From the NCBI RefSeq assembly GCF_000510645.1, contig NZ_KI783301.1, positions 2,673,151 through 2,737,150 on the forward strand: 64,000 nucleotides of DNA. Direction: 5' to 3'. Below are positions 37,477 to 58,129 of the stretch, one piece after another (position 1 is the first letter of the stretch; every line of letters begins with the position of its first letter). The DNA is from Thermicanus aegyptius DSM 12793 (GTDB lineage: Bacteria; Bacillota; Bacilli; Thermicanales; Thermicanaceae). The translations under genes were made by a program, and so were the position numbers. Under the pieces are notes generated by a model, which was not told the origin of the DNA, did no database searches, and was given only the letters and a program-made list of their open reading frames with translations.

Positions 37477-37518
37477 CCCAGAACCCCTCTTAATCCGGTC
37501 TTTAGGTCAGAACTCCAA

Positions 37519-39197: not shown

Positions 39198-39269
39198 TCC
39201 ACCACTCCATTATTCGTGCGACAGTGCCGTGATAATCTCTTCAATTCATGGCTTGAGCTTTGTACGCTA

Positions 39270-39737: not shown

Positions 39738-39769
39738 TTTATCACCCCTATATAGAAGGAGTTAGGGGA

Positions 39770-42239: not shown

Positions 42240-42260
42240 GGATTCACCTCAAGTCGACGT

Positions 42261-42313
42261 TATTCTTATATTTATTTGAATATTAGTGTATTCCGGTTTA
42301 TTGCAATTGTCAA
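42261..42313 (-). promoter_or_regulatory. cadC promoter and operator
   Basis: On the minus strand TTGACA (42313-42308) and TACACT (42290-42285) are 17 bases apart. TATTCAAATAAATATAAGAATA follows the -10 box and resembles the staphylococcal cadO (TCAAATAAATA core). A second TTCAAATATTTA motif lies upstream at about 42320. Confidence 0.85.
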
Positions 42314-42364
42314 GAGATTGTTCAAATATTTATTTTAACATTTAACAAATGGACATGGTATGGC

Positions 42365-42520
42365 TCAGCCCAAACAGCCCAAACGGAAGATTTTTAATAT
42401 GGAGTCTATTGGCCAGCAGAAAGTCCAGGTTGAAGCTTCCAGAGCTTCCAGATGGCCCGTACTCTCCATCGCGACGTAGTACAGCTTCCATGACTAGACA
42501 TTGCCCGAGTTACATCAGTT
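42365..42520 (-). pseudogene. IS110-family transposase scrap
   Basis: The minus strand reads YVAMESTG, then in another frame SFNLDFLLANRLHIKNLPFG. VAMESTG.YW and LLVNA.H.KNLPGRKTD are adjacent signature blocks of IS110 transposases. Only about 50 codons remain, with a frameshift. The rest of the 42240-42619 gap holds only the cadC promoter. Confidence 0.5.
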
Positions 42521-42619
42521 AGTCCGTTATGGTTCCTTGAACTCTTTGAATAAAGAAGCGCTGTAGTAATCAAAATACCCCATGATTGATACTTTTGGTT
42601 ATGAAAGAGGGAAATACTA

Positions 42620-44107: not shown

Positions 44108-44157
44108 TGTAACCGTCAAGTACTTTTGAGCAAATTCCGCTAAATAAGTTTCAACAC

Positions 44158-44913
44158 CTAGAAATCTCCAAATATGGTTTCTCTGTGTTTGAGGCGAAAA
44201 CTGTCCCCATCCAATTTAATCACCTCGCTCTTATGCAAAATCCGATCAAGAATCGCTGTTGTAATCGCTGGATCACCTAGCAGCTCTCCCCAATCCTCCG
44301 GACCTTTATTTGAGGTTAGAATAATGGAGGCTTGGCCATAGAGTTGATTCACAAATTGAAAAAATAAATTCGATTCGCTTTTGTCCATGGCCATAAACAT
44401 GAGATCATCGATGATCACAAGATCTGACCGTAAGATCCGTTTCATGCGAGTCTGTGACGTCCGTGCAATCTCTTGAGTCTTCATCAGATGGACCAGGTTA
44501 CCCATGGAAACAAAGCTGACCCGGTAGCCTCGTTCCAATGCTTCCAATCCCAGTCCCACTGACAAATGCGTCTTACCAACGCCGGGCGGGCCCAACAGAA
44601 TCAGGTTATATGTATGCTCCAGCCACAACATCTCCCGAAGTTGTTCCATCTGTCTTTTAGTAAGGGATTGCTGTTCTTCCAGCCGAAATTCATCCAGGGA
44701 CTTAATGAAGGGGAAGGCCGCCCATTTCAGGCGTTTCAATCGCTGCTTTTCTTCCCGTCGCTGCAGTTCATGCCTCAAGATATGATGCAGGAATTGACCA
44801 CAGCTCCAATCCTTCGTTTGAGCGTCCATGAGACTTTCCTCCAAGATCTGTGCCGCCTCCGTCAGGTGGAGTGCGCTCATCCATTGCTTCAATTCGCCCG
44901 TAGATGCTGACAT
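44158..44913 (-). CDS. istB: IstB-type transposition ATPase of IS21 copy 2
   Basis: The 251-residue AAA+ protein has Walker A GPPGVGKTHLSV and Walker B LVIIDDLMFMAMDK. It is about as long as copy 1 IstB but only distantly similar, so the two IS21 elements are different types. It starts one base after the istA stop. The gene itself looks intact, though its partner istA is interrupted. Confidence 0.93.
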   Translation of the reverse strand: MSASTGELKQWMSALHLTEAAQILEESLMDAQTKDWSCGQFLHHILRHELQRREEKQRLKRLKWAAFPFIKSLDEFRLEEQQSLTKRQMEQLREMLWLEHTYNLILLGPPGVGKTHLSVGLGLEALERGYRVSFVSMGNLVHLMKTQEIARTSQTRMKRILRSDLVIIDDLMFMAMDKSESNLFFQFVNQLYGQASIILTSNKGPEDWGELLGDPAITTAILDRILHKSEVIKLDGDSFRLKHRETIFGDF

Positions 44914-44914
44914 C

Positions 44915-45500
44915 CTATCTACCTCCCAAGATGCGTTTATATGTCTCGTATCCCCGTATTTGGGGCTTTATTTTTAGCTTTGCGGGATCCACCTGAGCCA
45001 GCAATTGAATATTGCTTTCATTCGGCTTCTCAACGATTTGCCTCTGCGCCGTATCCATGTAGTATTTAACGGCATCTGCAAAGTCTGCAGCACGGTACAG
45101 GCTGCGCTTTAGACAATAAGCTAGAGCTTGATCGGCCGATTCGGTGGTCGCCTCCGAGACGCTCCGTTCTATCGCTTGCAGTTGATCGCGTATGTATCTA
45201 GGTTTCTGTCGGCGAATCTCCTCTAGGTAACGCCTAGCTCCATGAGAATCCGTGAATCTTTCCGCAACATGATCCATGTATGCTTGAATGCCCTTCGTTC
45301 GATCCCGGCCATGGTTATTATTACGGATGAGTTCTCCCTTTCGATGGAGGCTAAGTGGATGCTCTGCCAAAATTTCTCCTGTATCCCCATCATAGATGAG
45401 AAGGCGATTGTCCTCTGTTACCTGCACAGCCACTTCTTTATCGGTTCCATCGTATGTGCCGAGGGGAACAGTGTATCGATTGGATTGATACCAGATGGTA
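44915..45500 (-). pseudogene. istA: IstA transposase of IS21 copy 2, C-terminal part
   Basis: From the IS junction the frame reads WYQSNRYTVPLGTYDGTDKE and continues to the stop at 44915 (TYKRILGGR). An internal start allows a 172-residue product from 45433, but it would lack the DDE core. Joined to the other part at 46944-47946 across the duplicated 17 bases, a single continuous IstA of about 520 residues is restored, showing that the nested insertion is the only visible defect. Confidence 0.88.
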
Positions 45501-46960
45501 TGTCAAGCGTCTGTGAATATGTCAGGTTAACTGTTCTATGAAAATGTCAGGGAGATGATAGCTGATTAAACAGCCGCCGTCCTCTTGCAGACTAGCCGGA
45601 TGCTGTGCTACGCTGTAACTGCTTGCTGGAGAATGGTTTTCTCCAGGGATGGTTTGCAGCGGGCTTGCGCGGGGACGCAGGCGCCGCTTCTTTTTTGGCC
45701 GTTGTTGGCGCCGGGGTCTGTGTGGCCTGTGTCTCCACACAAGGCCAGGCCCGCCCTTGATCCCACAGCCACACTTGTCCATCCATGCCGACACGCACTT
45801 CGACGACGCTCTTCGCTTCCCAGCGCGGAACACCGGGGACGGGCTTTGGCATGTAGCATTTCCCTTTCCAGAAGAACGTCTGCCCGCCGCTGATGCGCCG
45901 GTATTCCCGACGCGTGAAGATATGCTCCAAAGGCGTTTCGGGCAGCGGCCGGTAGGCCGGTTCAGCTTCTTGCGGCGCGACGGCAAACTGACGATTGTGC
46001 TTGGCGATAAGTTCCGGTAACACGCGATTGGCTTCCTCCATCGTGCACACGTTGCGCAGCCTAAGTTCGATCACCAGGCGATCCTGAAAGGTTTGCCAGA
46101 GCCGTTCGATCCGTCCTTTGGCTTGGGGTGACAGCGCCTCGATATGGGTAATGCCCAGATCGGCGAGGGCCTGTCCGAAGGTGGAAAGCGACGGCGGCTC
46201 ACCGGCCAATTCCTGCTCGAGGGTTGGCTTGCCCTTGGGCGGGTGAAAAATGGAGTGTTGGTCGCTGTAGAGCGCAAGCGGTACGCCTTTGCGCCTAAGC
46301 CCCTCGATCATGACGGTCACGTAGCCCTCCAGTGTTTCGGTCGGGCGGAAGGTGGCCGCGACCACTTCCCCGGTGGCGTCATCGATGATGCCGTGCAGGG
46401 TGAGCATGGGACCGCGATCCTCCAGCCAGGCATAGGGAGAAGCATCGATCTGCCACAGCATGCCCGCCTGAGGTTTGCGGGGCCGGGGTCGGTGAGCCTT
46501 CGGACGACGGCGCAGCCGCGCGGGACGCAACCCGCCTTCCAGCAGAATGCGGCGGACCGAAGAGACGCTTAAATGGATGTTTTCGTGTTCGGCCAACAGC
46601 TCGGCAAAGTGGGTGGCATTGCTTCCGAAGTAGCGCTCCTGATACAGGAGCATAACGCGTTGTTTGAGCGAATCGGTCAAGGTGTGAGCCGGCTTACGGC
46701 CCCGATTCCCATGTGCGATCGCTTGTGCACCTCCGTGACGATATTTGGCCTTGAGCCGATACGCTTGACGGACACTGATGCCCAGGTTGCGTGCAACATC
46801 CTGTTCCGTGAGATGGCCGTCGATCCATTTTTCAATGACCATAACGCGTTTCAGTTCGTTCTTTGTCAAGGTGATCTGCTCCTTGCTCATACTGACATTT
46901 TCTCGGATCAGTTACACCCTGACAATATCACAGAACAACAACAATTGATACCAGATGGTA
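45484..46960 (-). mobile_element. IS1202/ISNCY-type element nested in istA
   Basis: The element spans 45501-46943 (1443 bp). The ends begin TGT and share TCTGTGA and TGTCAGG in inverted orientation. The 17-bp sequence ATTGATACCAGATGGTA occurs at 45484-45500 and 46944-46960, an unusually long target duplication as known for the IS1202 group. Confidence 0.92.
45592..46890 (-). CDS. IS1202/ISNCY-type transposase with integrase core
   Basis: The 432-residue protein has an N-terminal helix-turn-helix (LTEQDVARNLGISVRQAYRL), an HTH_32-like region, and an rve-type DDE core: LWQIDASPYAWLED (first Asp), PLALYSDQHSIF (second Asp), and HIEALSPQAKGRIERLWQTF (Glu). The C-terminal 60 residues are Pro/Ala/Lys-rich. 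All catalytic residues are present and the target duplication is exact, so it is probably recent and may be active. Confidence 0.92.
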   Translation of the reverse strand: MSKEQITLTKNELKRVMVIEKWIDGHLTEQDVARNLGISVRQAYRLKAKYRHGGAQAIAHGNRGRKPAHTLTDSLKQRVMLLYQERYFGSNATHFAELLAEHENIHLSVSSVRRILLEGGLRPARLRRRPKAHRPRPRKPQAGMLWQIDASPYAWLEDRGPMLTLHGIIDDATGEVVAATFRPTETLEGYVTVMIEGLRRKGVPLALYSDQHSIFHPPKGKPTLEQELAGEPPSLSTFGQALADLGITHIEALSPQAKGRIERLWQTFQDRLVIELRLRNVCTMEEANRVLPELIAKHNRQFAVAPQEAEPAYRPLPETPLEHIFTRREYRRISGGQTFFWKGKCYMPKPVPGVPRWEAKSVVEVRVGMDGQVWLWDQGRAWPCVETQATQTPAPTTAKKEAAPASPRKPAANHPWRKPFSSKQLQRSTASG

Positions 46961-47946
46961 TTGTCCTTTCGCACGGTTCTCGTTATACTAGAGTTAACAT
47001 TAATTTCTATCTTTTTGTGGATCGGGCGAAGATACACTTTTTCTATGGCGTATACTTCGGCCGGTATTTTTTTGGTCGTTTGGTGCATTTTCGCATTTCC
47101 CGTTCGGTGTAACCAGGCGATGCATTGCTCATTCAACTTGTCCACGTTGGTGAAAGGGCGGTGCCGGGCGAAGTTTCGTTTGATGTATTTCACTACGCTC
47201 TCAATTTTGCCTTTGCTCTCGGGATCGCCTTTGCGGCACATGTGTATCCGGAAGTTTCGTTCTTCCACATACTTTGCAAATTCGTGGGTTAGAATGAGAT
47301 CGCCGTGGTTTTCGCTGGTTAGCAGCAAATGATCCTGATCGTAGACGATTTCCTCTGGCAAACCGCCGTAGAACTCAAAGGCTTCTTCATGGGCATGCAC
47401 GACATCCGCCGTTGTGAACGGCCGGTCTTGCCATTTCGCGTATTTGTACCGAGACCGGGATAGAACAAAAGTGATGAACCAAAGCCTGACCAGATAACCT
47501 TCCGGGTGCCGAAGCTTGGCTTCCCCGAAGTCCACCTGCATCTGCTTTCCCATTGGCAGCTCTTCAACTGCTTCATACTGTCTCATGCGCTTTTCTTTCG
47601 GTATTCCATACTCCATTCGCAGACCGCTCACATAATTTCGGACGGTGCTTTCAGCGATCTTCACATCCTTGTAACGTTCCTGCAGCCAGTCCATCACCTG
47701 AGCACCAGATAGGTCTGGGTATTTACGCAACCAACTGAGGATCTCTGTTTCGAATGAGTCCAACTTTTTGGATCGAGTTTCGAGACTCTCTAAGAACTGC
47801 TTATACTCATCGACGGACATGTTCCAGTATTTCATCACCGTATTCCGGGATAGATTTAAGTTTCGGGCCACCTGCGATTTTCTCAACCCTAGTTTTTTCT
47901 GCTCCTGAATGGCGAAGTACATAGGCCACCTTTCCTTCTTCCTCAT
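46944..47946 (-). pseudogene. istA: IstA transposase of IS21 copy 2, N-terminal part
   Basis: The start at 47946 gives MRKKERWPMYFAIQEQKKLG, a helix-turn-helix (SQVARNLNLSRNTVMKYWNM), and the DDE core (MQVDFGEAKLRHPEG, LPEEIVYDQDHLLL, GDPESKGKIESVVKYIK). The native frame ends at DNTIWYQ; the remaining codons to 46912 come from the nested element. As it stands the protein lacks the C-terminal region that contacts IstB. Confidence 0.9.
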
Positions 47947-48061
47947 ACCTCTTCCTCCTGGTGCTAAATTACCAGTTCTATGATAGCTTAATAGGAAGGG
48001 TATGGTAAATGTTGCTCATTCTTATTTAGCGGAATCTGTTGATTCTATTCTAGCGGTTACA

Positions 48062-48559
48062 CAAGGGCTAAAGCATTAAAGAAAACGGAGAAAATTTTTG
48101 GAGAATCCTACATGTATTCGCCTAAACACTCCTGTACCCCTTCCTAATGGAGCACGTGCGCTGAAGGTTCCTACGGATCTATTCGACAAAGAGCAAATCA
48201 AACTTGCTTTTGCCCACGGGGATTCCGAGGGAGGATACAAGGTGCCAAGCCTTATCGGTCTTTATTGGACTGCCCCTTACCTGCATGATGGGGGTGTAGC
48301 CGTTGGTAAGGACGCCAAAACCCAACTTGGAGTAACGGCAACCCTAATGAAGGGCATTCAACCGGACCCAACGAACAGCATCCGGGCACTCGTGGACAAA
48401 AAACTGAGGGAACAAGTGGTAAACGCCAATCGCTCATCAAAAGATTTACAATCCGTTCACGTTCAAGGAATTGGGCATGAATTTTGGGTGGATTCCTCCA
48501 CCGGATTTACGGAGAAGGAACAGGAAGCCTTAATCAAATATTTGCTGTCGTTAAAATAA
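48062..48559 (+). pseudogene. Di-haem cytochrome c gene, 3' part
   Basis: After the IS21 end the original frame continues RAKALKKTEKIFGESYMYSP, then needs a shift at the AAA of 48124-48126 to reach NTPVPLPNGARALKVPTDLF, SLIGLYWTAPYLHDGGVAVG and the end KYLLSLK. A single added A explains this. The segment PYLHDGG holds the region near the distal haem ligand in related cytochromes. A frame starting at 48098 with TTG is open but has no binding site and would not make a working protein. Confidence 0.82.
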
Positions 48560-48570
48560 CCGTTTTTTTT

Positions 48571-48604
48571 CAAAACGAGGGAGCCAAAGGGCTCTCTTTT
48601 GTTT
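48571..48604 (+). terminator. Terminator of the cytochrome gene
   Basis: GAGGGAGCC-AAA-GGGCTCTC followed by TTTTG lies about 20 bases after the cytochrome stop on the plus strand. Confidence 0.75.
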
Positions 48605-48878
48605 TAGGTCTAAAATCCACGTCCTCTTGGGTAGGTGATTTGACCGATCCACGTGGCATCACCCCAAAGTTTGGATATGAGCCCCCTAGTCCGAGTCACA
48701 GCGGAACTTTAACCCGCCTGATAATCTGATGATAGTAGTACCAGCGTAGTCAATTTGAAAGCGATTTTTACTTGAAAATTCAATCTGCGTCATGTTATTG
48801 ATTTTGCGGATATGTTTGATTCTCTGCCCAATATCATCCATTTACATGTCCCCTCTTTAAAATGCTTGCTGGAATATA
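48605..48878. other. Intergenic stretch with no recognised gene
   Basis: I see no gene on either strand. Short hydrophilic frames are interrupted by stops. Confidence 0.5.
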
Positions 48879-48909
48879 CAAAGAAGCCCTCAAAATGAGG
48901 ACTTCTTTG
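48879..48909. terminator. Bidirectional-type hairpin
   Basis: CAAAGAAGCCCTCA-AAA-TGAGGACTTCTTTG pairs over 14 positions with one mismatch, between the cytochrome and monooxygenase genes, which converge here. Confidence 0.7.
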
Positions 48910-48961
48910 TATGTGGCGTAGTCTCGTCTGCCATTAAAGCATTTGTTTGCCGGGAGTTTTT

Positions 48962-49002
48962 TAAAGCATATACTTGCCACAACGGCAAAAATATGCTTTA
49001 AC
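48962..49002. repeat. Inverted repeat at the end of the truncated monooxygenase gene
   Basis: AAAGCATATACTTGCC and GGCAAAAATATGCTTT pair with two mismatches around ACAA. It starts right after the stop of the monooxygenase frame. Neither strand has a T run after the hairpin, so a terminator role is doubtful; it may mark a deletion junction or an element end. Confidence 0.55.
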
Positions 49003-49629
49003 TCACACTCGCCCCAGGATTCTTTGTTTGACAAACTTCACGGGCCGCAGTACCGCCAAAGACGTCTTGCTCACCTCCGCCAACTCGACGGCGATCTGAA
49101 CGGCGGAATTTCCGGCCCCGACAACCACCACCCTTTGGTTCACAAACGGAGTCGGGTTGCGGTACTCGGAAGAATGAAGGATATTTCCCCGAAACTCTTC
49201 CCGTCCTTTTATTACGGGCATATATGGATGTTGAAAAGCCCCAGTTGCGTTAATGACGGTTCTGCTCAGATACGTATTTCCGGAAACCGTTCGAATCGTG
49301 AATGTATCGCCGGTTTTCTCCACCGACTTCACCCGCTGATTGGTTTGAATCGGCAGCCGAAATTGTTTGGCATACTTCTGCAAGTAACGAATGACTTCAT
49401 CCCGCAGCGGGTAATGATCACCTGCCCCTGGGAACTTCATGCCGGGCAACGATGAAAACCGCGCGGGAGAAAACAATTTAAGACTGTCATAGTAATTCGG
49501 CCACGATCCGACTGCTCGCTCGTTCGCCTCCAAAATGAGAAACCGCAGTCCATTCTTTTGCAAGTGGTACCCTGAGGCCAGACCAGCCTGACCTCCTCCG
49601 ATGACGATGGTATCCCATAGCTCTTTCAT
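49003..49629 (-). pseudogene. FAD-dependent monooxygenase (CzcO-like), truncated
   Basis: The ATG at 49629 follows GGGGAGGAATCGG. The first 208 residues match flavin monooxygenases: FAD motif TIVIGGGQAGLASGYHL, SWPNYYDSLKLFSPARFSSL, and the NADP motif RVVVVGAGNSAVQIAVELAE. Relatives are about 350-400 residues long and continue after LRPVKFVKQRILG; here a stop follows two residues later. The C-terminal 40 percent is missing, so the enzyme is probably inactive. It is divergent-regulated with a MarR gene through shared operators. Confidence 0.8.
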
Positions 49630-49651
49630 ACCGATTCCTCCCCAGACTTTA

Positions 49652-49695
49652 CTTGCAAATTGCAAGTATTAGAAATTTTATTTGCAAACTGCAAG
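49652..49695. promoter_or_regulatory. Two MarR-type operators upstream of the monooxygenase
   Basis: CTTGCAAATTGCAAG (49652-49666) is a perfect dyad; TTTGCAAACTGCAAG (49681-49695) is a variant. Both share the TTGCA core with a site upstream of the marR gene. Confidence 0.8.
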
Positions 49696-49728
49696 TATGC
49701 GGCAAAACAAGCCATGATTTTCCCGTTG

Positions 49729-50166
49729 TTAACCGCAACAAAACCCCGTTTTCTCCATGCATGCGTTCAACAGCTTCAGCGAGCGGATCACGGTTTCTTT
49801 TTCAAACTCATTCATATGGGAGAAAATTTGACTCAAATATTCTTGCACCTGCTGCTCAATCGCTGCCGCGACAAATTTCCCTTCTGTCGTCAACTCTAAT
49901 ATATATACCCTTCGATCTTGGTCGAAAGGCGTTTTTTTCACGAGCTTTTTCCGAATCAACGATTGAATTTGCCGGCTGAATGTGGTGATATCCATTCCCA
50001 AAGCATCCGCAATCTGTTGCATGGACGGACGATGCTGGCGATCAATCTCATAAAGAATGTGGCTCTGAGTTAAGGAGACACTCATTCCGCCAACCGAACA
50101 ACAATTTTTGTTCAGGAAACCAAAACGCCGGGTAATCAATTGGAGAACATGGCGAACATCTTCCAT
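49729..50166 (-). CDS. MarR-family transcriptional regulator
   Basis: The ATG at 50166 follows GGAGGTGAACTCG; a frame from 50181 lacks a site. The 145-residue protein has a winged helix (SMQQIADALGMDITTFSRQI, QSLIRKKLVKKTPFDQDRRV) flanked by dimer helices. Several Cys (NKNCCSVGG near residue 27, GFCCG at the end) suggest thiol-based sensing, as in OhrR-type members, though this is inference. TTGCAa..TTGCAA dyads lie both upstream of its own gene and upstream of the monooxygenase, implying control of both. Confidence 0.9.
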   Translation of the reverse strand: MEDVRHVLQLITRRFGFLNKNCCSVGGMSVSLTQSHILYEIDRQHRPSMQQIADALGMDITTFSRQIQSLIRKKLVKKTPFDQDRRVYILELTTEGKFVAAAIEQQVQEYLSQIFSHMNEFEKETVIRSLKLLNACMEKTGFCCG

Positions 50167-50201
50167 CGAGTTCACCTCCAATGATCATTATACATTTTTA
50201 T

Positions 50202-50214
50202 TTGCAATTTGCAA
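50202..50214 (-). promoter_or_regulatory. MarR-type operator upstream of marR
   Basis: TTGCAATTTGCAA is a dyad with the same core as the two sites at 49652-49695. It lies about 36 bases upstream of the marR start. Confidence 0.75.
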
Positions 50215-50379
50215 CTATAATGAAGAAGAATTTCGACCCTTTTTCCAAAGCGAAAACAGGGTCAGACTCAGAAACAGTTTCTGGAACCTGAATTTTGTGC
50301 GGTGCAGATCAACACCAAACCACTGAAAAATGTATCAGCCAAACAAAAGACCGGTTTCGTTACCGGTTTGCAAAATAGT

Positions 50380-51021
50380 TCATACTTGGTCGGGATGAAT
50401 ATTAAATTGCTGAATTCCGTGATATGAATTCCGTATATTATCTCTATAAGTTCGTCTCTTTGCTAATTTCAAGTTCCTCTTCATACTTTCGAGCTTTATT
50501 AGCCATTCTTCTTCCGTCCACTTATCCAACATATCCTTGTTTCTGCAATCATTTGTTTCAAAAAAACGACCCGAGGTTTCCCAAAGGGGAATTAAATTGA
50601 TCTTCGCTCTCAATTCAAGCTTTTTCATTCTGTCTTGAGAATCATTCCATCTCCGGCACCTTCCACATCGTTTCCCGCTCAAGAAGTTATTCAAACAAAT
50701 CTCCGTCTCATGTCCATAGGGGCAAATGACTTTAATCGGCGCTTTCCCATTAATGTAAATTGAATCCAAAACTTTATATCCTTCCACCGCGAAAATATTT
50801 ATCACTTGATACAGAGAATATTTCTTTTTTCGTCCACATACGCTACATCTACGTCCAGAACCAAAATTACTCATATTGGTCGTCCATTCATGACCTTTGG
50901 GACACATCACGTTCAAATTACTTTTTGCATTTTTATATTCTGTGGAAAGTAGCTTGTAGCCTTCCTTTTCAAATCTACTCCGTACTTCTTCATACGTAAG
51001 CTTATCCTTAATAAATATCAT
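50380..51021 (-). CDS. Treble-clef zinc-finger repeat protein
   Basis: The 213-residue protein has two zinc-finger repeats: VMCPKGHEWTTNMSNFGSGRRC..C at about residues 39-63 and VICPYGHETEICLNNFLSGKRC..C at about 98-122. Each has a CP.GHE....NF.SG.RC..C treble-clef pattern seen in DUF4379/DUF723-like domains near nucleases and mobile genes. A basic helical C-terminus (MKRNLKLAKRRTYRD) follows. Nucleic-acid binding is likely; no catalytic motif is visible. The start has a GGAAGGGG site. It lies next to the tRNA-Leu(CAG) gene, outside the tRNA-flanked segment. Confidence 0.7.
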   Translation of the reverse strand: MIFIKDKLTYEEVRSRFEKEGYKLLSTEYKNAKSNLNVMCPKGHEWTTNMSNFGSGRRCSVCGRKKKYSLYQVINIFAVEGYKVLDSIYINGKAPIKVICPYGHETEICLNNFLSGKRCGRCRRWNDSQDRMKKLELRAKINLIPLWETSGRFFETNDCRNKDMLDKWTEEEWLIKLESMKRNLKLAKRRTYRDNIRNSYHGIQQFNIHPDQV

Positions 51022-51127
51022 ATTTACCCCTTCCGGGGTCTAGCGCAGCCGTCGTTTTCTATGCGTTATATTTTCTACGTTTGTAGACGCGACACCAATG
51101 CCATGTTATTGTTCAAAAACAATAATA

Positions 51128-51150
51128 AAACCCTCCAGACTCTGAAGGGC
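51128..51150 (-). terminator. Terminator after tRNA-Leu(CAG)
   Basis: On the minus strand CCCTTCA-GAGTC-TGGAGGG (one wobble pair) is followed by TTTTATTATT, 13 bases after the tRNA 3' end. Confidence 0.75.
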
Positions 51151-51163
51151 GTAATAATATGTA

Positions 51164-51251
51164 TGGTGCGGTTGAGAGGACTCGAACCTCCACGGGGTGT
51201 TAGCCCGCACGGACCTGAATCCAGCGCGTCTGCCAATTCCGCCACACCGGC
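51164..51251 (-). tRNA. tRNA-Leu(CAG), chimeric or decayed
   Basis: The 88-nt sequence has leucine-type D-arm, long variable arm, TTCGAGTCC T-loop and encoded CCA, with anticodon CAG. The 5' half is the same as tRNA-Leu(CAA). The acceptor stem GCCGGTG/CAACCGC has two mismatches (pairs 3-70 and 5-68), and the anticodon arm lacks a base compared with the expected GGTTCC. It may be a pseudogene. Confidence 0.8.
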
Positions 51252-51453
51252 ATATTACCGGGCGTAAGTGTAAACACTACGGTAATTATTACAGGCGCAA
51301 ATAATAGGTGTATTCGGGCGAATATTGTCATTCTCTTTCCCGTCACGATATCCGGCAGCACGGCCAGTTTCGCCCATCAACCGATCTGGTCTTTTGGAAT
51401 ACAATCGCAGCCCATTTTGATGTGCTAAAATTGATGAAACCCAGTCTTCCAAG

Positions 51454-54400
51454 CTAGGCTTCTTTCAACATGCAATAATTACCTTGTTTATCAACTACTT
51501 TCTCTTCTATCATCTTGGCTAGATTTTTTTCGATTCGAGTCCTCATCTCCTCCGTTACTCGCATAAAACCGAATAATCTGCAGACTGAAGGAGCGATTTC
51601 ATCTTCTTTCATCCCAAACGCATCGGAAATCACCTTTTCGATGGCAACCCGGATCTCCTCCGTTGAAACCCATTCCAGTTTTTTGGATGAAGCGGGAAGG
51701 TTGCTACGGTCTCGAATAGTAGGTCGATTCATTCCTTTTAACCACAGAAAATCATCTTTAATTACAACTTTTCCCGTTCGGACAAGTAATCTGCATGCCT
51801 TTTCGATAGCTTCCTTAATGCGATTGCCTGCCCGTTTAATACCCGCCGCCTCACAAATTCTTTTTAGGACTTCATGAATATGCACAGGACTTTCGACTTT
51901 CACCACTTCCAAGACCCAGGAAGAAATTTGTTCTAATGGAATCTCGTGAAACTCGTAACCGGGCGCACCTATTCTAAAAGTGGCACATTGATAAGGAGTT
52001 ACAGCATGTTGTTCTTCACGCGTGCTTTCGTCCCGTTCCAGAGAAAAAACATTCGCTTCTTCCTTCCGAATTTCCTTCGAGCTAGACTTTATATGAAGCC
52101 GCGCCTTCTCTATGGCTTCAGCCAGCCGTTTTCGTTCCCGATCCGGATGACGAAACCAGTCGGTACTCCATATCCGGTGAATGTTCCACCCCAGTCCTTC
52201 CAGCACTTGCTGCCTTAACCGGTCACGATCCCGCGCCGACCTGGCACTGTGATAGGTGGCTCCATCGCATTCCACACCCAAAAGGTATCGGCCAGGCGAT
52301 TCCGGATCCACCACAGCCAAGTCGATGTAAAATCCTCCGGATCCTACCTGTTTTCTGACTTCATATCCCATCGAAAGGATCGCTTCCGCCACCGCTTCCT
52401 CAAATGGCGAATCCGCCGCCCTGTCCGTGGCCTTGGGAATATCCAGGATTCCGGTCCTAGCGTATTTGAGGAATGTTTTCAAGGCTTTCATTCCTTGGGC
52501 TTGCGTGCGGCTTAAATCGATATCATCGTCCGTGATGTTGGTAAACACTTCGCAACGCAAACGAGCACGGGTGATCAGCACGTTTAGTCTCCGCTCTCCT
52601 CCATTGCGATTCAGCGCTCCGAAATCCATGGATACGTACCCGTCTTCCGTTTTGCCGTAACCGATGCTGATGAACATCACGTCGCGTTCGTCGCCCTGGA
52701 CATTTTCCAAATTTTTAACAAAGAACGGTTCATGGGGATGCGCTTGGAAAAACGATTCGCACGACGGGTCTTCCCGGCGCAAAAGTTCCAGCTGATCTTG
52801 AATCGCCTGCATTTGCGCTACACTAAATGCGACGACACCCAAAGTCAAATGGGGATCCCGCTTGGCATGCGCCATGACCGCCTGTGCGACGGCTTTGGCT
52901 TCTTCCATATTGGTTCGGCTGCGTCCCCGGTCATACCGGGTATGTGGCAAGTATTGAAACACAAGGCCCGAACGGTCTTTTTGCAAGTCAGGGCTTGGAA
53001 AAACGACGAGCCGGTTATCGTAAAACTCCAAGTTGGAAACCGCGATTAACGATTCGTGCCGGCTTCGATAATGCCAACGGAGCATCCGCCGCGGCGCATT
53101 TTGAGCCAGAAAGAGCCCCAGGATACTTTCCAGATCGCCAACGGTGTCATCCTCTTCGCTTTCTTCCCCTTTGGTGATAGAGTCGAAAAAATGGGTCGGT
53201 GGCATTTGTTTGCTGTCTCCGACGATCACCACCTGTTTGCCGCGAAGAATGGCTCCGAACGCATCCACCGGCTTGACCTGACTCGCTTCATCAAATATAA
53301 CCAGGTCAAACTTCAAACTTCCCGGCGGAAGATATGTCGCGATCGAGAGTGGCCCCATCATAAACACCGGCTTGAGGGCTTGTATCGCATAGCCCGCATT
53401 TTCCATGAGCCGGCGGATGGGCAAATGTCCCTTTTTCTTTTCAAATTCGCGTTTCAGGACCCCCAACTGTCCTCCTGCTTCGTACTGGGGAATCCTTTTC
53501 CAATGAATTTCGGCCAGTTTCATTTTGTTATGTTCCAAAAGAGCGCGATCCAATTCCTGAAACGTTTCCACGACATGGCGATGCCGATCCCCGTCAAACT
53601 GCACCAATACGGATCGTTCCTGAAAAGCTTGTTTAGTCAGCGCATCATACCATGTAAAGCGAAAAAGATCGGTTAACTGTCGCGAGGCGTGTTCCCAAGT
53701 GCGGCTGAGCGACACAACGGCCCCCATCTCTTCCTTGTTGCATGCGTCGCACAGCAAGTTGTAGGAAGCCAGCGTTTGTATCGAATCAGCATGATCCGCC
53801 CAACGCTGAAACCGTTCATCCAACTCTTGAAACGGTTGATCCGAGAGCGACTGAGAATTCCCGAATACAGTGGAAGTGTCGAGCTCCAGAAGGTTGGCCA
53901 GTTCTGCAACCCATTCCCGGAACTGCTCCAAACGTTGTCCGACTGTTGCCATACTGTTTTCTAATTCCGTACGATTCACGGGTGTAGTTAACAAAGGAAT
54001 GATCCAGCCCGGTAAACGGCCGGTTTGGATTTCTTTGTGCAATGGACACAACCATTGAACCCACTCGTTGATGCGAGTCCAATCCGATTGTTCTTTCTTC
54101 CAGTGCACGCCAAAACAAGATCCCCCCAAGGCATCCATGCTTTGAATGAATTGTTGCTGACGCCTTGCTTCGATGATGTCCTCCACAACTTGGAGGACAT
54201 CCAGTTTTTGATAAGAGACGTCCTTATATAAACGAAAAAGCTTATTCCTTGCTTTCCGATAAGATCCCGATAACCATCGCCACCATTTTTTCTGGTACAT
54301 CATGAGCGTTTGTCGAACATCGAGCAGATCCTGATCCCACGCTTCGGGAATCAGAATGTCCCGATATCGGTGCCGTAATTCCGAAAATTTCAGACCTGAC

Positions 54401-56172
54401 GAAACGAGACGTTGAATTTCTTCAGCTTGTTGAGTCCATTCGTCCGCACTTATCTTGACCCCTTGCAATTCCGGCGCTTCCAGTATTTTGCTTGCGACAA
54501 CACCGACCATTTGGACTTCTTTTACGTCCTGAGGAGTTTCCACATGCAGCATTTGCGCCAACGCTTGGGAAGATTCCTTTAAGGTTTCGAGCGCCCGTTT
54601 CGCTTTGTTCACCATCTCCCTTAATTTGCCCACTTCCGTTGGCAAGAAAACGGTTCGCCCGCTTCCCCAAAACGGATGCTCCTTCGGAATTCCCATCGTG
54701 CCCAGCAGTTTCTGGAGCTCCTCCACGAGCAGAAGACGGCGCTGGAACGTGGAGCGATCCCATTTCTCCATCCCGTTGATTTCCAGGCTGGGGAAAATAA
54801 AGTCGTCACCAATCTTGTGCCCGAACCGCACCAGTTCGCCTAATAGTTGATAAGGGGTGAGCCCGCTTTCCCCCACCGGTGTATGATTCGCCGCGCAATA
54901 ATCATTGAGCCGTCGACGAAAGTCTTCTAGCACATTAACTTTGTCTTCAAACTCTTTCACTTTCGGTTTGCCCAACTCCAACGTTCTGGCCAATTCGCTG
55001 AGGAGCGTTTTTTTGTTGGTCTTATGGCTGTGTAATTCAAGACAAGCGTCTCCCAATCCGACGTGATCCAGCCGCCGTTTGACCACTTCCAGGGCAGCCA
55101 TTTTCTCCGATACGAACAATACCGTTTTCCCGCGTCCCACAGCTTCGGCAATGATATTGGTGATCGTCTGCGATTTCCCCGTTCCCGGCGGACCCTGGAT
55201 GACCAGATTCCGGCCGCTGTTGACGTCGAGAATGGCCTGCAACTGCGAGCTGTCCGCATCCACCACATGATGCACATCATGAAATGAAACATGCGGATCC
55301 ATAAAATCGTCATCTTGAATGACGGAAGCCGGTTCCGAAAATCCTTCATTTAACAAACTGAGCAGGATGGCATGATCGGTAGGTTTGCTTTCTTCCGGCC
55401 AGTTCGTTACGTCCAAATCCCGGTACATCAAAAACTTGCCGAATGAAAAAAATCCCAAAACGATGGCCTGTTTGTCCACCGTCCACCGAGGCTCGCTTTG
55501 AATGGCTTCTTCCACTTGAAGGAAATACTGGACGACATCGATCTCCTCTTCTTCCGGAAGAGGCGGAATGGAAATCCCGAATTCCGCTTTCGCCTTCGCG
55601 ATCAGGGATAAGTTGGATCCGATGTCTTCTTCGGTATAAGAGACTTTGAACCGTTCCCGCGCATTCGTCCGTTCCAGTTTCACCGGGATCAAGATAATGG
55701 GAGCCTTTCGAACCTCTTGACTGCTTTCGGATTCATGCCAGTGCAGCATTCCAAGAGCCATATACAAAATGTTAACGCCCTGTTCTTCGATAAAAGTCCG
55801 GGCTGTGTAATATGTATTTAACAACCTTGCCTGCAATTGTTTTTCGGTCAAATTCGTTTTCAACTTGGATTCAGGAACGCGCTGTTGGGATAGCGAAAAA
55901 TCCTCTTCCGAAGACGGAATTTCGTTTTCAGTTTCTTCAGCTTCCGCTTCAGATGGAAGCAATTCGTTTTTTCCTTTCTCCACGGGCATGAAGGTGACCG
56001 ATTTTTGATTGCAAACCAGAATTTCAAAAACGTCCAGCGGTGACCCGCCTACCACTTCCAAACCACGGGATTTCAAAAGACGGTAATTCAGTAGAGAATT
56101 CCGTAATCCGAGGTCCAATAATTCTTGTCGAGCCATCTCCAATTTATGATGCACGGACGGATTGCCGTTCAC
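51454..56172 (-). CDS. DUF4011-helicase-nuclease-DUF3320 protein (Hhe-like defence candidate)
   Basis: This 1572-residue protein has, in order: a DUF4011 N-terminus (ELLDLGLRNSLLNYRLL at 17-33); a superfamily I helicase with Walker A GPPGTGKSQT at 327-336, DEAS box VIFDEASQVKPVDAF near residue 955, and late motifs LENVQGDERDVMFISIGYG and LNVLITRAR; a Vsr/DUF559-like PD-(D/E)xK domain near 1290-1370 (FYIDLAVVD, LLGVECDGATYH); and a DUF3320-like end (VESPVHIHEVLKRICEAAG). This order is that of the DUF4011-helicase-Vsr (Hhe) anti-phage candidates, as I recall them. It stands alone between two tRNA-Leu genes sharing a direct repeat. Catalytic residues all look present. Confidence 0.88.
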   Translation of the reverse strand: MNGNPSVHHKLEMARQELLDLGLRNSLLNYRLLKSRGLEVVGGSPLDVFEILVCNQKSVTFMPVEKGKNELLPSEAEAEETENEIPSSEEDFSLSQQRVPESKLKTNLTEKQLQARLLNTYYTARTFIEEQGVNILYMALGMLHWHESESSQEVRKAPIILIPVKLERTNARERFKVSYTEEDIGSNLSLIAKAKAEFGISIPPLPEEEEIDVVQYFLQVEEAIQSEPRWTVDKQAIVLGFFSFGKFLMYRDLDVTNWPEESKPTDHAILLSLLNEGFSEPASVIQDDDFMDPHVSFHDVHHVVDADSSQLQAILDVNSGRNLVIQGPPGTGKSQTITNIIAEAVGRGKTVLFVSEKMAALEVVKRRLDHVGLGDACLELHSHKTNKKTLLSELARTLELGKPKVKEFEDKVNVLEDFRRRLNDYCAANHTPVGESGLTPYQLLGELVRFGHKIGDDFIFPSLEINGMEKWDRSTFQRRLLLVEELQKLLGTMGIPKEHPFWGSGRTVFLPTEVGKLREMVNKAKRALETLKESSQALAQMLHVETPQDVKEVQMVGVVASKILEAPELQGVKISADEWTQQAEEIQRLVSSGLKFSELRHRYRDILIPEAWDQDLLDVRQTLMMYQKKWWRWLSGSYRKARNKLFRLYKDVSYQKLDVLQVVEDIIEARRQQQFIQSMDALGGSCFGVHWKKEQSDWTRINEWVQWLCPLHKEIQTGRLPGWIIPLLTTPVNRTELENSMATVGQRLEQFREWVAELANLLELDTSTVFGNSQSLSDQPFQELDERFQRWADHADSIQTLASYNLLCDACNKEEMGAVVSLSRTWEHASRQLTDLFRFTWYDALTKQAFQERSVLVQFDGDRHRHVVETFQELDRALLEHNKMKLAEIHWKRIPQYEAGGQLGVLKREFEKKKGHLPIRRLMENAGYAIQALKPVFMMGPLSIATYLPPGSLKFDLVIFDEASQVKPVDAFGAILRGKQVVIVGDSKQMPPTHFFDSITKGEESEEDDTVGDLESILGLFLAQNAPRRMLRWHYRSRHESLIAVSNLEFYDNRLVVFPSPDLQKDRSGLVFQYLPHTRYDRGRSRTNMEEAKAVAQAVMAHAKRDPHLTLGVVAFSVAQMQAIQDQLELLRREDPSCESFFQAHPHEPFFVKNLENVQGDERDVMFISIGYGKTEDGYVSMDFGALNRNGGERRLNVLITRARLRCEVFTNITDDDIDLSRTQAQGMKALKTFLKYARTGILDIPKATDRAADSPFEEAVAEAILSMGYEVRKQVGSGGFYIDLAVVDPESPGRYLLGVECDGATYHSARSARDRDRLRQQVLEGLGWNIHRIWSTDWFRHPDRERKRLAEAIEKARLHIKSSSKEIRKEEANVFSLERDESTREEQHAVTPYQCATFRIGAPGYEFHEIPLEQISSWVLEVVKVESPVHIHEVLKRICEAAGIKRAGNRIKEAIEKACRLLVRTGKVVIKDDFLWLKGMNRPTIRDRSNLPASSKKLEWVSTEEIRVAIEKVISDAFGMKEDEIAPSVCRLFGFMRVTEEMRTRIEKNLAKMIEEKVVDKQGNYCMLKEA

Positions 56173-56280
56173 TTCCCAAACCCCCGAACCTCTACGTCAA
56201 TCATGGGTATATTTCGACAAATGTTAGCATTTCCCTGTTTGCAGTGTCAAACAATTCTAAAGAAAACAAGGTAAAAATAA

Positions 56281-56298
56281 AAAAAGCCCATCGGGCTG
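56281..56298 (-). terminator. Terminator after tRNA-Leu(CAA)
   Basis: On the minus strand AGCCC-GAT-GGGCT followed by TTTTTTTA lies about 20 bases after the tRNA-Leu(CAA) 3' end. Confidence 0.85.
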
Positions 56299-56317
56299 GG
56301 TTATCCAATATACGTAA

Positions 56318-56400
56318 TGGTGCCGGTGGAGGGACTCGAACCCACACCCTTTCGGACGCGATTTTGAGTCGCGCGCGTCTGCCAATTCCGCCACACCGGC
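56318..56400 (-). tRNA. tRNA-Leu(CAA)
   Basis: Acceptor stem GCCGGTG/CACCGGC is perfect, anticodon stem CGCGA/TCGCG encloses CTCAAAA with anticodon CAA, the T-loop is TTCGAGTCC, and CCA is encoded. It has its own promoter and terminator. Confidence 0.96.
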
Positions 56401-56410
56401 ATATTATTAT

Positions 56411-56440
56411 ATTATAACACAAGTTGAATCATATTGTCCA
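56411..56440 (-). promoter_or_regulatory. Promoter of tRNA-Leu(CAA)
   Basis: On the minus strand TGGACA (56440-56435) and TATAAT (56416-56411) are 18 bases apart, and the tRNA begins 11 bases after the -10 box. Confidence 0.8.
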
Positions 56441-56688
56441 CAATAAAATTTTTACAGATTTTTACATTCGAACAACTTGACTCATTTATCATTTCGAGGT
56501 AATGTCGACACACCAACCGCACACAACTCCACCTCTCAACGTCGCTACAAAAGCGAGGCGGGTCAAAAGCGGTTGAAATTTACGGAGTTTGGCGATGCCT
56601 AACCGGAAAAAGCGAGGTCGACATTTCGCAAACCCCTTATCTATCAAGGCGTCCCGGCATTTCGCGCGAACCAAAACCGCCTCGTACA
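56441..56688. other. Spacer between tRNA-Leu(CAA) and the tRNA fragment
   Basis: No gene is recognised. A minus-strand open frame runs through the tRNA fragment but has the typical look of translated tRNA sequence and is not credible. Confidence 0.5.
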
Positions 56689-56729
56689 ATTTTGAGTCGT
56701 GCGCGTCTGCCAATTCCGCCACACCGGCA
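56689..56729 (-). pseudogene. tRNA-Leu 5'-half fragment
   Basis: This matches the first 40 bases of tRNA-Leu(CAA), from GCCGGTGTGGCGGAATTGGC through the anticodon loop (GACTCAAAAT), then stops and unrelated sequence follows. It is the third copy of the tRNA-Leu 5' half within 5.6 kb. Confidence 0.85.
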
Positions 56730-56814: not shown

Positions 56815-56891
56815 TGGCGTGCCCGGAGGGATTCGAACCCCCGACCTTCTGATTCGTAGTCAGACACTCTATCCAGCTGAGCTACGGGCAC
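56815..56891 (-). tRNA. tRNA-Arg(ACG)
   Basis: Cloverleaf with acceptor GTGCCCG/CGGGCAC, anticodon loop CTACGAA, T-loop TTCGAATCC and encoded GCCA. Last intact gene of the large minus-strand tRNA cluster. Confidence 0.96.
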
Positions 56892-56930
56892 ATGAAGTAT
56901 TCGAATTGGGGAAATCCCGCATCGATGAAA

Positions 56931-57019
56931 TGGTGCCGAGGACCGGACTTGAACCGGTACGGTAGTCACCTACCGCAGGATTTTAAGTCCTGTGCGTCTG
57001 CCAATTCCGCCACCCCGGC
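56931..57019 (-). tRNA. tRNA-Leu(TAA)
   Basis: 89 nt with a long variable arm. Acceptor GCCGGGG/CCTCGGC, anticodon loop CTTAAAA (TAA), T-loop TTCAAGTCC, encoded ACCA. Confidence 0.96.
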
Positions 57020-57031
57020 ACATGAAGAAAA

Positions 57032-57107
57032 TGGAGCGGATGACGAGGCTCGAACTCGCGACCCCAACCTTGGCAAGGTTGTGCTCTACCAGCTGAGCTA
57101 CATCCGC
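57032..57107 (-). tRNA. tRNA-Gly(GCC)
   Basis: Acceptor GCGGATG/CATCCGC, anticodon loop TTGCCAA around GCC, T-loop TTCGAGCC, encoded TCCA. Confidence 0.96.
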
Positions 57108-57131
57108 AAGTTTATGGCTATTGAAATAAAA

Positions 57132-57206
57132 TGGCTGGGGTGGCTGGATTCGAACCAACGCATGACGGAGTCAAAGTCCGTTGCCTTACCGCTTGGCTAC
57201 ACCCCA
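57132..57206 (-). tRNA. tRNA-Gln(TTG)
   Basis: Acceptor TGGGGTG/CACCCCA, anticodon loop CTTTGAC (TTG), T-loop TTCGAATCC, encoded GCCA. Confidence 0.96.
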
Positions 57207-57241
57207 ATTTGACGATCAACCAAAGAACCCGTACAAAAGTT

Positions 57242-57270
57242 ATTTTATTATTTTTTATTTCTTTTATCAA
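57242..57270 (-). promoter_or_regulatory. Internal promoter for the Gln-Gly-Leu-Arg tRNAs
   Basis: On the minus strand TTGATA (57270-57265) and TAAAAT (57247-57242) are 17 bases apart, in the only long AT-rich gap of the tRNA cluster. Two GC-rich hairpins lie just upstream, between this promoter and tRNA-Phe. Confidence 0.55.
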
Positions 57271-57333
57271 GGGGAGTTCATTCCTTCCCCTTAAAACGAT
57301 GCCCCCGAGCGGGGATCGCTATACGACCTATGG

Positions 57334-57409
<76 letters not shown>

Positions 57410-57422
57410 ATCTGTTCATACA

Positions 57423-57498
57423 TGGCGGTGCTGACGGGATTTGAACCCGCGATCTCCGGTGTGACAGACCGGCATGTTGACCCCTACACCACAGCACC
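57423..57498 (-). tRNA. tRNA-Asp(GTC)
   Basis: Acceptor GGTGCTG/CAGCACC, anticodon loop CTGTCAC (GTC), T-loop TTCAAATCC, encoded GCCA. Confidence 0.96.
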
Positions 57499-57516
57499 AC
57501 GAGTGCGACAATAAAT

Positions 57517-57595
<79 letters not shown>

Positions 57596-57625
57596 ATCTG
57601 AAGGATCACAGAAGATTCATGCGGA

Positions 57626-57701
57626 TGGTGGACGGTGACGGGATCGAACCGCCGACCCCCTGCTTGTAAGGCAGGTGCTCTCCCGGCTGAGCTAACCGTC
57701 C
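57626..57701 (-). tRNA. tRNA-Val(TAC)
   Basis: Acceptor GGACGGT/ACCGTCC, anticodon loop CTTACAA (TAC), T-loop TTCGATCCC, encoded ACCA. Confidence 0.96.
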
Positions 57702-57743
57702 TTTTCAATGTAAATGTAAAAGCGGTGAGGTGTAAGGGAAGAT

Positions 57744-57818
57744 TGGTGACCCGTAGGGGATTCGAACCCCTGTTACCGCCGTGAAAGGGCGGTGTCTTAA
57801 CCACTTGACCAACGGGCC
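57744..57818 (-). tRNA. tRNA-Glu(TTC)
   Basis: Acceptor GGCCCGT/ACGGGTC with one wobble pair, anticodon loop CTTTCAC (TTC), T-loop TTCGAATCC, encoded ACCA. Confidence 0.96.
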
Positions 57819-57879
57819 GTCTCCGAACCGCGCCAAAGTTCCTTACACGAATTTCGTTTACCGTCTTCAACTTCTTAAC

Positions 57880-57955
57880 TGGTGCTCCCGACAGGAATCG
57901 AACCTGCGACCTCATCCTTACCATGGATGCGCTCTGCCTACTGAGCTACAGGAGC
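57880..57955 (-). tRNA. tRNA-Thr(GGT)
   Basis: Acceptor GCTCCTG/CGGGAGC with one wobble pair, anticodon loop ATGGTAA (GGT), T-loop TTCGATTCC, encoded ACCA. Confidence 0.96.
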
Positions 57956-57960
57956 ATAGA

Positions 57961-58053
57961 TGGCGGATAGGGTGGGATTTGAACCCACGGTACGGCTTAT
58001 AACCGCACACACGATTTCCAATCGTGCTCCTTCGGCCACTCGGACACCTATCC
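57961..58053 (-). tRNA. tRNA-Ser(GGA)
   Basis: 93 nt with a long variable arm. Acceptor GGATAGG/CCTATCC, anticodon loop TTGGAAA (GGA), T-loop TTCAAATCC, encoded GCCA. It is a normal serine tRNA, not tRNA-Sec. Confidence 0.96.
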
Positions 58054-58054
58054 A

Positions 58055-58129
58055 TGGCTCCGCAGACAGGACTCGAACCTGTAGCCTACCGGTTAACAGC
58101 CGGTTGCTCCACCATTGAGCTACTGCGGA
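58055..58129 (-). tRNA. tRNA-Asn(GTT)
   Basis: Acceptor TCCGCAG/CTGCGGA, anticodon loop CTGTTAA (GTT), T-loop TTCGAGTCC, encoded GCCA. First gene of the minus-strand cluster, about 100 bases after its promoter. Confidence 0.96.

What the first reader, a model, noticed from the sequence alone, without database searches (positions are those of the whole stretch)
51164..56729. A DUF4011-helicase-nuclease gene lies between tRNA-Leu genes sharing a direct repeat
About 35 bases (TAATATGCCGGTGTGGCGGA onward to GACGCGC) are shared, in the same orientation, at both ends of a 5.1-kb segment whose only gene is a 1572-residue helicase/nuclease of Hhe-like architecture. A third 5'-half copy lies at 56689-56729. 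This is what a small defence island inserted by recombination at tRNA-Leu would leave. No integrase is inside, so it may be moved in trans or by homologous recombination between tRNA genes.
Basis: partly seen in the sequence, partly recalled or inferred. Interest (0 to 1): 0.75.

Follow-up and report, generated by a model that had tools for sequence, protein, structure and literature searches.

The report
Mobile element with replacement leucine tRNA
The antiviral-type helicase gene is cargo at the end of a 91-kilobase DNA element that cuts a bacterial leucine tRNA gene in two when it inserts and brings its own complete leucine tRNA as a substitute, so the cell may come to rely on the invader.

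Summary
It is the right end of a ~91.4-kb integrative and conjugative element that splits the host tRNA-Leu(CAA) gene at its anticodon loop. The 5' half is at window 56689-56728; the pairing 3' half lies 91 kb away, about 230 bp from a tyrosine integrase, outside the window. Joined, the halves read as tRNA-Leu(CAA). Neither junction rebuilds a tRNA (shared core 9 bp). Instead the element carries a complete tRNA-Leu(CAA) (56318-56400), 0.3 kb inside its right end; it is the only CAA gene among the 64 tRNAs detected. A second genus has the same anatomy (119 kb; integrase 65%, VirB4 74% identical). Cohnella laeviribosi has the pieces, including an anticodon-matched CAG version. The helicase (PADLOC PDC-S37) is cargo beside the replacement tRNA; Gabija genes sit at the other end. 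The "tRNA" at 51164 is a dead chimera joined exactly within the 7-bp anticodon loop. The logic matches phage "tRNA-dependent lysogeny" (2024); my searches found no report of it for a conjugative element. That the cell needs the replacement tRNA is inferred; the second genus keeps a spare copy.

The parts
1..56697 (.). part of the ~91.4-kb integrative and conjugative element inside the window (whole element G000:C1:2638475-2729839; the left 34.7 kb lie before the window)
   Evidence: split-tRNA halves at both ends, integrase at far end, conjugation genes
1390..2316 (-). M23 peptidase (conjugation cell-wall hydrolase, inferred)
   Evidence: Pfam PF01551
3903..6386 (-). VirB4/ConE-like ATPase (AAA_10)
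   Evidence: Pfam; 74% identical homologue inside the G375 island
6383..7132 (-). TcpE-family conjugation protein
   Evidence: Pfam PF12648
7421..8239 (-). TcpC-like conjugation protein
   Evidence: Pfam PF12642
8246..9145 (-). Replication-relaxation protein, probable relaxase
   Evidence: Pfam PF13814
9316..11616 (-). TrwB-like coupling protein
   Evidence: Pfam PF10412
51087..51163 (-). flank shared with the Cohnella tRNA-Leu(CAG), including a 14-nt scrap (51087-51100) that in Cohnella continues into an N-terminally truncated gene
   Evidence: blastn window 51087-51253 to L058 15655-15485; translation
51164..51251 (-). dead chimeric tRNA-Leu: 5' half of one gene (GCCGGTG..CTGGA) fused to 3' half of the CAG replacement tRNA; fusion point TTCAGGT at 51213-51219
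51454..56172 (-). helicase-nuclease cargo gene (PADLOC PDC-S37), 1572 aa, Walker A, DEAS and nuclease motifs present
56285..56297 (-). terminator-like site of the replacement tRNA
56318..56400 (-). complete replacement ('rescue') tRNA-Leu(CAA) carried by the element; its own loop ACTCAAAAT (56361-56369) is where homology to Cohnella begins
56411..56440 (-). promoter-like site TGGACA-18-TATAAT just upstream of the replacement tRNA
56404..56688 (-). right arm of the attachment site (285 bp), alignable with the right ends in G375 and Cohnella
56689..56728 (-). 5' half of the split host tRNA-Leu(CAA), ending in core ACTCAAAAT (56689-56697); 3' half at G000:C1:2638420-2638475
56815..58129 (-). host tRNA cluster (Asn to Arg) whose last gene, Leu(CAA), is the target
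   Evidence: intact Leu(CAA) after Arg(ACG) in four order relatives

Best explanation
An integrative and conjugative element (~91.4 kb) inserts by a tyrosine integrase into the anticodon loop of the last tRNA gene of a host cluster, tRNA-Leu(CAA). attP and the target share only 9 bp (ACTCAAAAT), so neither junction rebuilds the tRNA and the host gene is left in two dead halves. The element compensates with a complete tRNA-Leu of the same anticodon, with its own promoter-like and terminator-like signals, just inside its right end. In this genome the cell would then have one CAA gene either way: its own when the element is out, the element's when it is in. Because the replacement tRNA contains the same anticodon loop, it can itself be attacked: in Cohnella an element end sits inside that very tRNA, and in the window a crossover between two TTCAGGT loops deleted an arm and left the chimera at 51164. 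The helicase is defence-type cargo next to the replacement tRNA. Shown from sequence: both halves, their pairing, the integrase, the conjugation genes, the anatomy in a second genus, the junction positions. Inferred: that recombination is by this integrase, that the replacement tRNA works and is needed, that the element still transfers, and that the helicase is antiviral.
For: (1) The 3' half of a tRNA-Leu(CAA) at C1:2638420-2638475 lies about 230 bp from an integrase and pairs 7/7 (acceptor) and 5/5 (anticodon stem) with the 5' half at window 56689-56728; joined, ARAGORN reads tRNA-Leu(caa); it finds no tRNA at either junction. (2) G375, in another family: 3' half beside the 65% integrase, 5' half 119 kb away, ~240-bp alignable arm, intact tRNA-Leu(CAA), conjugation ATPase 74% identical inside. 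(3) Cohnella: integrase 95% identical at a CAA 3' half; separately a 5' half ending TTCAGGT, arm, intact tRNA-Leu(CAG). (4) Window/Cohnella homology starts at 56369 (A of ACTCAAAAT) and ends at 51213 (last T of TTCAGGT). (5) Four of the five order relatives have an intact Leu(CAA) after Arg(ACG), with 3' part 91-95% like the split gene; the fifth was not read. (6) Conjugation module. (7) 17 of 30 integrase loci examined have a tRNA-Leu or a piece of one within 800 bp upstream. (8) Of the 64 tRNAs over the Rfam cut-off (150 of 182 candidates scored), all typed by ARAGORN, the element's is the only Leu(CAA).
Against: No empty site with the same two chromosomal flanks was found: the own left flank shows no tblastx similarity to the relatives' loci, and G003/G004 were read for at most 6 kb. 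G375 has a second intact tRNA-Leu(CAA) (L121), so the replacement is not strictly needed there. UUG can probably also be read by tRNA-Leu(TAA) (recalled). Inverted arm sites are no better than shuffles in one element (12 of 14 against shuffle best 10.8 mean, 13 max). The terminator-like site is no more than chance expects (1 found, 0.9 expected). The rescue 5' half also pairs with the host 3' half (with a wobble), so pairing alone does not prove which 5' half belongs to it. Cohnella's pieces are remnants: similarity to the tandem integrase region stops at L058 8392, within the second integrase gene. No excision or transfer data.
Confidence: 0.85

Rival explanations
1. One reading: a small defence island carrying only the helicase, inserted between tRNA-Leu genes by homologous recombination or in trans.
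For: The helicase segment is a discrete unit between two anticodon-loop junctions in window and Cohnella; it may have moved as a unit in the past.
Against: Both tRNA-Leu pieces lie inside a larger element with integrase, conjugation genes and outer split-gene ends; the chimera junction is in a 7-bp loop, not in the 23-bp identical block.
Confidence: 0.08
2. The replacement tRNA is incidental baggage: left over from an earlier island at the same site (accretion), not selected to replace the split gene.
For: tRNA-Leu(CAA) is an insertion hotspot with multiple copies in an order relative (G001 has three copies); G375 keeps a second Leu(CAA).
Against: The tRNA sits at the same place, next to the same alignable arm, in three elements with three different tRNA sequences, each with matching stems and the anticodon of its target.
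Confidence: 0.2
3. The element-borne tRNA is mainly a decoy or back-up against tRNA-cutting antiviral systems.
For: Suggested for phage tRNAs in general (discussion of PMC10865867); the island carries defence-type genes.
Against: Does not explain the matching of split-gene anticodon and replacement anticodon or the location at the attachment arm.
Confidence: 0.04

Closest known systems
tRNA-dependent lysogeny of mycobacteriophages (PMC10865867: abstract, passages and discussion read); a similar tRNA substitution is discussed for Sinorhizobium prophages (PMC11476347, passages)
   Different: here a conjugative element in another bacterial class; the core is the anticodon loop; the replacement tRNA sits next to the attachment arm, occurs in anticodon-matched versions (CAA, CAG) and is itself re-attacked; need for the tRNA untested here
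Standard tRNA-gene islands (Islander, PMC4383910, passages read)
   Same: tyrosine integrase, island between tRNA-gene fragments; anticodon-centred crossovers are a known class
   Different: standard islands restore the target from a fragment in attP; here no junction is restored and a whole separate tRNA is supplied
Gram-positive ICEs with TcpC/TcpE/ConE-type conjugation modules (Tn916/ICEBs1 type; recalled)
   Same: VirB4-like ATPase, TcpC, TcpE, M23 hydrolase, coupling protein, relaxase candidate
   Different: target and tRNA replacement as above
PADLOC PDC-S37 / Hhe helicase-nuclease
   Same: PDC-S37 model matched over nearly its whole length (2078.9 bits); DUF4011-helicase-nuclease order
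   Different: Hhe matches only in part (816 bits; best stretch 697-1346, model 1911 positions)

Membership tests
tRNA-dependent integration (as in tRNA-dependent lysogeny) | insertion into a tRNA gene with a short core, tRNA not rebuilt at either junction | tested here: met
   core ACTCAAAAT, 9 bp; half tRNAs at both junctions, none called intact there
tRNA-dependent integration (as in tRNA-dependent lysogeny) | element carries a complete tRNA of the same isotype | tested here: met
   CAA in the window and G375; CAG in Cohnella
tRNA-dependent integration (as in tRNA-dependent lysogeny) | element tRNA required for viability of integrants | not testable with these tools
   only CAA gene among 64 detected in the own genome, but G375 has a second copy
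tRNA-dependent integration (as in tRNA-dependent lysogeny) | the element is a temperate phage | tested here: not met
   conjugation genes found; no structural phage family among the island proteins scanned with Pfam, nor in 10 proteins scanned with PHROGs; not every ORF was scanned
Integrative and conjugative element | integrase plus defined att ends | tested here: met
Integrative and conjugative element | relaxase, coupling protein, VirB4 ATPase and channel proteins | tested here: met
   Replic_Relax, TrwB-like, AAA_10, TcpC, TcpE; relaxase activity inferred from family name
Integrative and conjugative element | excises and transfers | not testable with these tools
   no reads or mating data
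PDC-S37 defence candidate | full-length match to the PADLOC model | tested here: met
   residues 6-1565 to model 5-1542 of 1550
PDC-S37 defence candidate | protects against phage | not testable with these tools
   no assay; motifs present

The most novel reading that the evidence does not exclude
A family of conjugative elements holds its host hostage through a tRNA: insertion destroys tRNA-Leu at the anticodon loop and the element supplies the only working copy, so any imprecise loss of the element is punished as with a toxin-antitoxin pair. The replacement tRNA doubles as a fresh landing site, letting elements stack, and comes in anticodon-matched versions because the anticodon loop is the crossover site.
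Probability: 0.5. Interest if true: 0.78.

Novelty: new variant of a known kind. Interest (0 to 1): 0.62.

Why it matters
tRNA-dependent lysogeny was described in 2024 for phages of actinobacteria, whose authors asked how widespread it is elsewhere. This is sequence evidence that large conjugative elements use the same trick, in two genera plus Cohnella remnants; the one in the window carries defence-type and metal-transport cargo. It suggests a simple way an island can become hard to lose, explains stray tRNA halves and a mis-called tRNA, and warns that island finders which expect a rebuilt tRNA at one end may miss such elements.

Tried and rejected
Insertion of the helicase alone was rejected. 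Reading 51164-51251 as tRNA-SeC (ARAGORN) was rejected: it is tRNA-Leu DNA matching L058, although selA lies nearby. A general association of the helicase with tRNA genes was not supported: 0 of 9 further helicase loci have a tRNA in the sequence held (about 1.5 kb of flank each), and the own second copy has none in the 19.9 kb of L019. Helicase relatives in other collections: 3 phage records, one covering 92% at 31% identity, and 427 plasmid records, all under 60% identity, 34 of them covering at least 80%; not followed further. Viral contigs gave one weak integrase match and no match to the right-junction pattern. Plasmids: two integrase matches under 60% identity. Arm-type repeats within one element were not above shuffles. 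G111 has integrase genes 35-46% identical with no tRNA-Leu found near L076. The restoring types (5' half at the integrase in G336, G354) were looked at only briefly. The locus-centred Cohnella genus search did not run.

Full report
WHAT IS THERE. The repeats are real: four 43-nt tRNA-Leu 5'-half copies in one orientation. The ORF is real: 51454-56172(-), 1572 aa, with DUF4011, AAA_11/12, MTES_1575 nuclease and DUF3320; PADLOC PDC-S37 matches over nearly the full length at 2078.9 bits and Hhe at 816. ARAGORN finds an intact tRNA-Leu(CAA) at 56318-56400 and calls 51164-51251 'tRNA-SeC'; Rfam gives the latter 28.0 bits, under the 29 cut-off.

THE COHNELLA COMPARISON. A scan of GTDB genomes returned four loci encoding relatives. 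Cohnella laeviribosi (L058) encodes a 93% identical helicase. Homology runs from window 56369 to 51213 in two pieces (93.6% and 96.7%), interrupted only by about 290 bp extra in Cohnella. Both ends are exact: the first base is the A of ACTCAAAAT in the anticodon loop of tRNA-Leu(CAA), the last is the final T of TTCAGGT in a CAG anticodon loop. Outside these points the contexts differ. On the 56369 side the window has the rest of an intact tRNA; Cohnella has the end of another element with a tyrosine integrase, whose tandem partner gene is cut off at L058 8392. On the 51213 side Cohnella has an arm without a called gene and an intact tRNA-Leu(CAG) with a GCGGTTG acceptor; the window jumps straight to the 3' half of that CAG tRNA. 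The two TTCAGGT sites in Cohnella are 269 bp apart. The window chimera keeps the left copy's CTGGA stem, so the joint lies 3' of it, within TTCAGGT, not in the 23-bp identical block. Its stems pair 5/7 and 2/5, so I take it to be dead.

THE ELEMENT. The own genome has an integrase 95% identical to Cohnella's at C1:2638704-2639675, with a second integrase ORF overlapping it (Phage_integrase). Beside the first, at 2638420-2638475, is a tRNA-Leu 3' half starting at ACTCAAAAT. It pairs 7/7 and 5/5 with the 5' half at window 56689-56728; joined in a script they are read as tRNA-Leu(caa). The element between them is ~91.4 kb and includes window 1-56697. It carries VirB4-like, TcpE, TcpC, replication-relaxation, TrwB-like and M23 proteins, two metal-transport-type P-type ATPases, transposases, a GajA/GajB (Gabija) pair beside the integrases (823 and 761 bits) and, at the other end, the helicase.

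THE REPLACEMENT tRNA. Neither junction rebuilds a tRNA: ARAGORN calls none at 56689-56728 or at the left junction (L062, L072). 285 bp inside the right junction lies a complete tRNA-Leu(CAA), with an 11-of-12 promoter-like match (TGGACA-18-TATAAT; 3 sites found in the region against 0.9 expected) and a terminator-like hairpin (1 found against 0.9 expected). 64 tRNAs in the genome pass the Rfam cut-off (where 150 of 182 candidates were scored). ARAGORN typed all 64: Leu TAA, TAG, CAG and GAG occur, and the only CAA is the element's. A DNA search with it found no other full copy.

A SECOND GENUS. Of 398 class genomes, own included, 116 have an integrase match at E<=1e-30; the closest other genome is G375 at 65%. 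There the 3' half sits beside the integrase at 2455830-2455880, the 5' half at 2574944-2574984 next to tRNA-Arg at the end of a tRNA cluster, then an alignable arm and an intact tRNA-Leu(CAA) of different sequence at 2574623-2574705. The joined halves read as tRNA-Leu(caa). The VirB4-like protein (74%) lies inside this 119-kb island. A result against strict dependence: G375 has another intact tRNA-Leu(CAA) at 2906242 (L121).

THE INTEGRASE FAMILY AND THE TARGET. Of the 30 loci taken for the best matches (of a longer list), 17 have a tRNA-Leu or a piece of one within 800 bp upstream of the integrase, 2 had under 100 bp upstream to look at, and downstream only one 13-nt match appeared. 11 of the 30 keep an ARAGORN-intact tRNA-Leu there, as in the standard restoring type; G336 and G354 have a 5' half at the integrase end and an intact gene with the same 5' half far away. 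In the order relatives G001-G004 the cluster ends Leu(TAA), Arg(ACG), intact Leu(CAA), and the 3' part of that Leu resembles the split gene (91-95% over 37-49 nt). G001 and G002 also have an integrase of this family (32%) about 7-8 kb away with further Leu copies or a 3' half, so the site looks like a hotspot. G005's cluster was not fetched. The own left flank shows no similarity to these loci, so the empty site is supported by the tRNA gene and the cluster only.

HOW IT LIKELY WORKS. See Best explanation. The anticodon loop with its stem is the classic core-site shape (passages of PMC8371274). Since the core is the anticodon loop, an element that attacks CAA should carry CAA, and one that attacks CAG should carry CAG, as seen. 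Since the substitute contains the same loop, it is itself a target, as seen in Cohnella.

WHAT IS KNOWN. Islander states the usual rule: island sequences restore the disrupted gene (PMC4383910, passages). tRNA-dependent lysogeny (PMC10865867; abstract, passages, discussion) is the exception, in phages; its authors mention prophage Lj965 and call for surveys elsewhere. For Sinorhizobium prophages one paper discusses a similar tRNA substitution (PMC11476347, passages) and one reports prophages that do not show it (PMC12429752, passages). My searches for a conjugative element of this kind listed none that I recognised; they cover open-access PMC papers only, and most listed papers were seen as listings. 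Four papers in that library hold DUF4011, DUF3320 or PDC-S37. That Hhe was tested as an antiphage gene in E. coli is recalled, not looked up. Against a purely mobile view of the family: a large DUF4011 gene is a conserved core gene flanking a P. aeruginosa defence hotspot (PMC10250203, passages).

THE HELICASE. Walker A (GPPGTGKS, 327), DEAS (961) and nuclease (ECDGATYH, 1301) motifs are present. In an alignment with the second own copy, Cohnella and eight further relatives (of the loci held, four helicase loci were not included), Walker A and DEAS are kept in all eleven; the ECDG..YH nuclease motif is kept in the two close copies and in five of the eight, deviates in the two relatives at 29-30% identity (L173, L174) and is missing from L061's fragment. 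The gene occurs in 10 of 398 class genomes, own included, at E<=1e-150, and in none of the five other order genomes at that level. A second own copy (84%) sits elsewhere, among Rpn-like, DndB, FRG and NB-ARC/Schlafen-type genes and without tRNA. Its antiviral role is inferred from family and company.

CHECK.

Noticed in passing
L019:1756-17428 (G000:C1:1412755-1428427): Second helicase copy (84%) lies between direct repeats of Rpn-like PDDEXK_2 genes, near DndB-, FRG- and NB-ARC/Schlafen-domain genes: a second, different defence-type neighbourhood.
   Followed up: partly
[quoted passage not shown]
   Followed up: partly
L022:1365-1460 (G000:C1:2249364-2249459, -): A 96-nt tRNA-Ile(TAT) with an unusually long variable arm between tRNA-Trp and tRNA-Glu.
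   Followed up: no
L097, L099, L103: Three of the 30 examined integrase loci have a gene called tRNA-SeC upstream, so the family may also target selC.
   Followed up: no
L058:15637 onward: In Cohnella the tRNA-Leu(CAG) is followed by an N-terminally truncated gene with a CHWCRVMERESFED motif (YyaL-like, recalled); 14 nt of it also survive in the window at 51087-51100.
   Followed up: partly
window 50380-51021: A CapR-domain protein, also matching phage HNH-endonuclease families in PHROGs, lies next to the chimeric tRNA.
   Followed up: no
window 58277-59854: selA lies directly beyond the tRNA cluster, which may mislead annotators into accepting the false tRNA-SeC call at 51164.
   Followed up: no
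L161 (G001:C2), L162 (G002:C9): Smaller elements with a 32% integrase at the same tRNA-Leu(CAA): three intact Leu(CAA) copies in G001, an extra 3' half in G002.
   Followed up: partly
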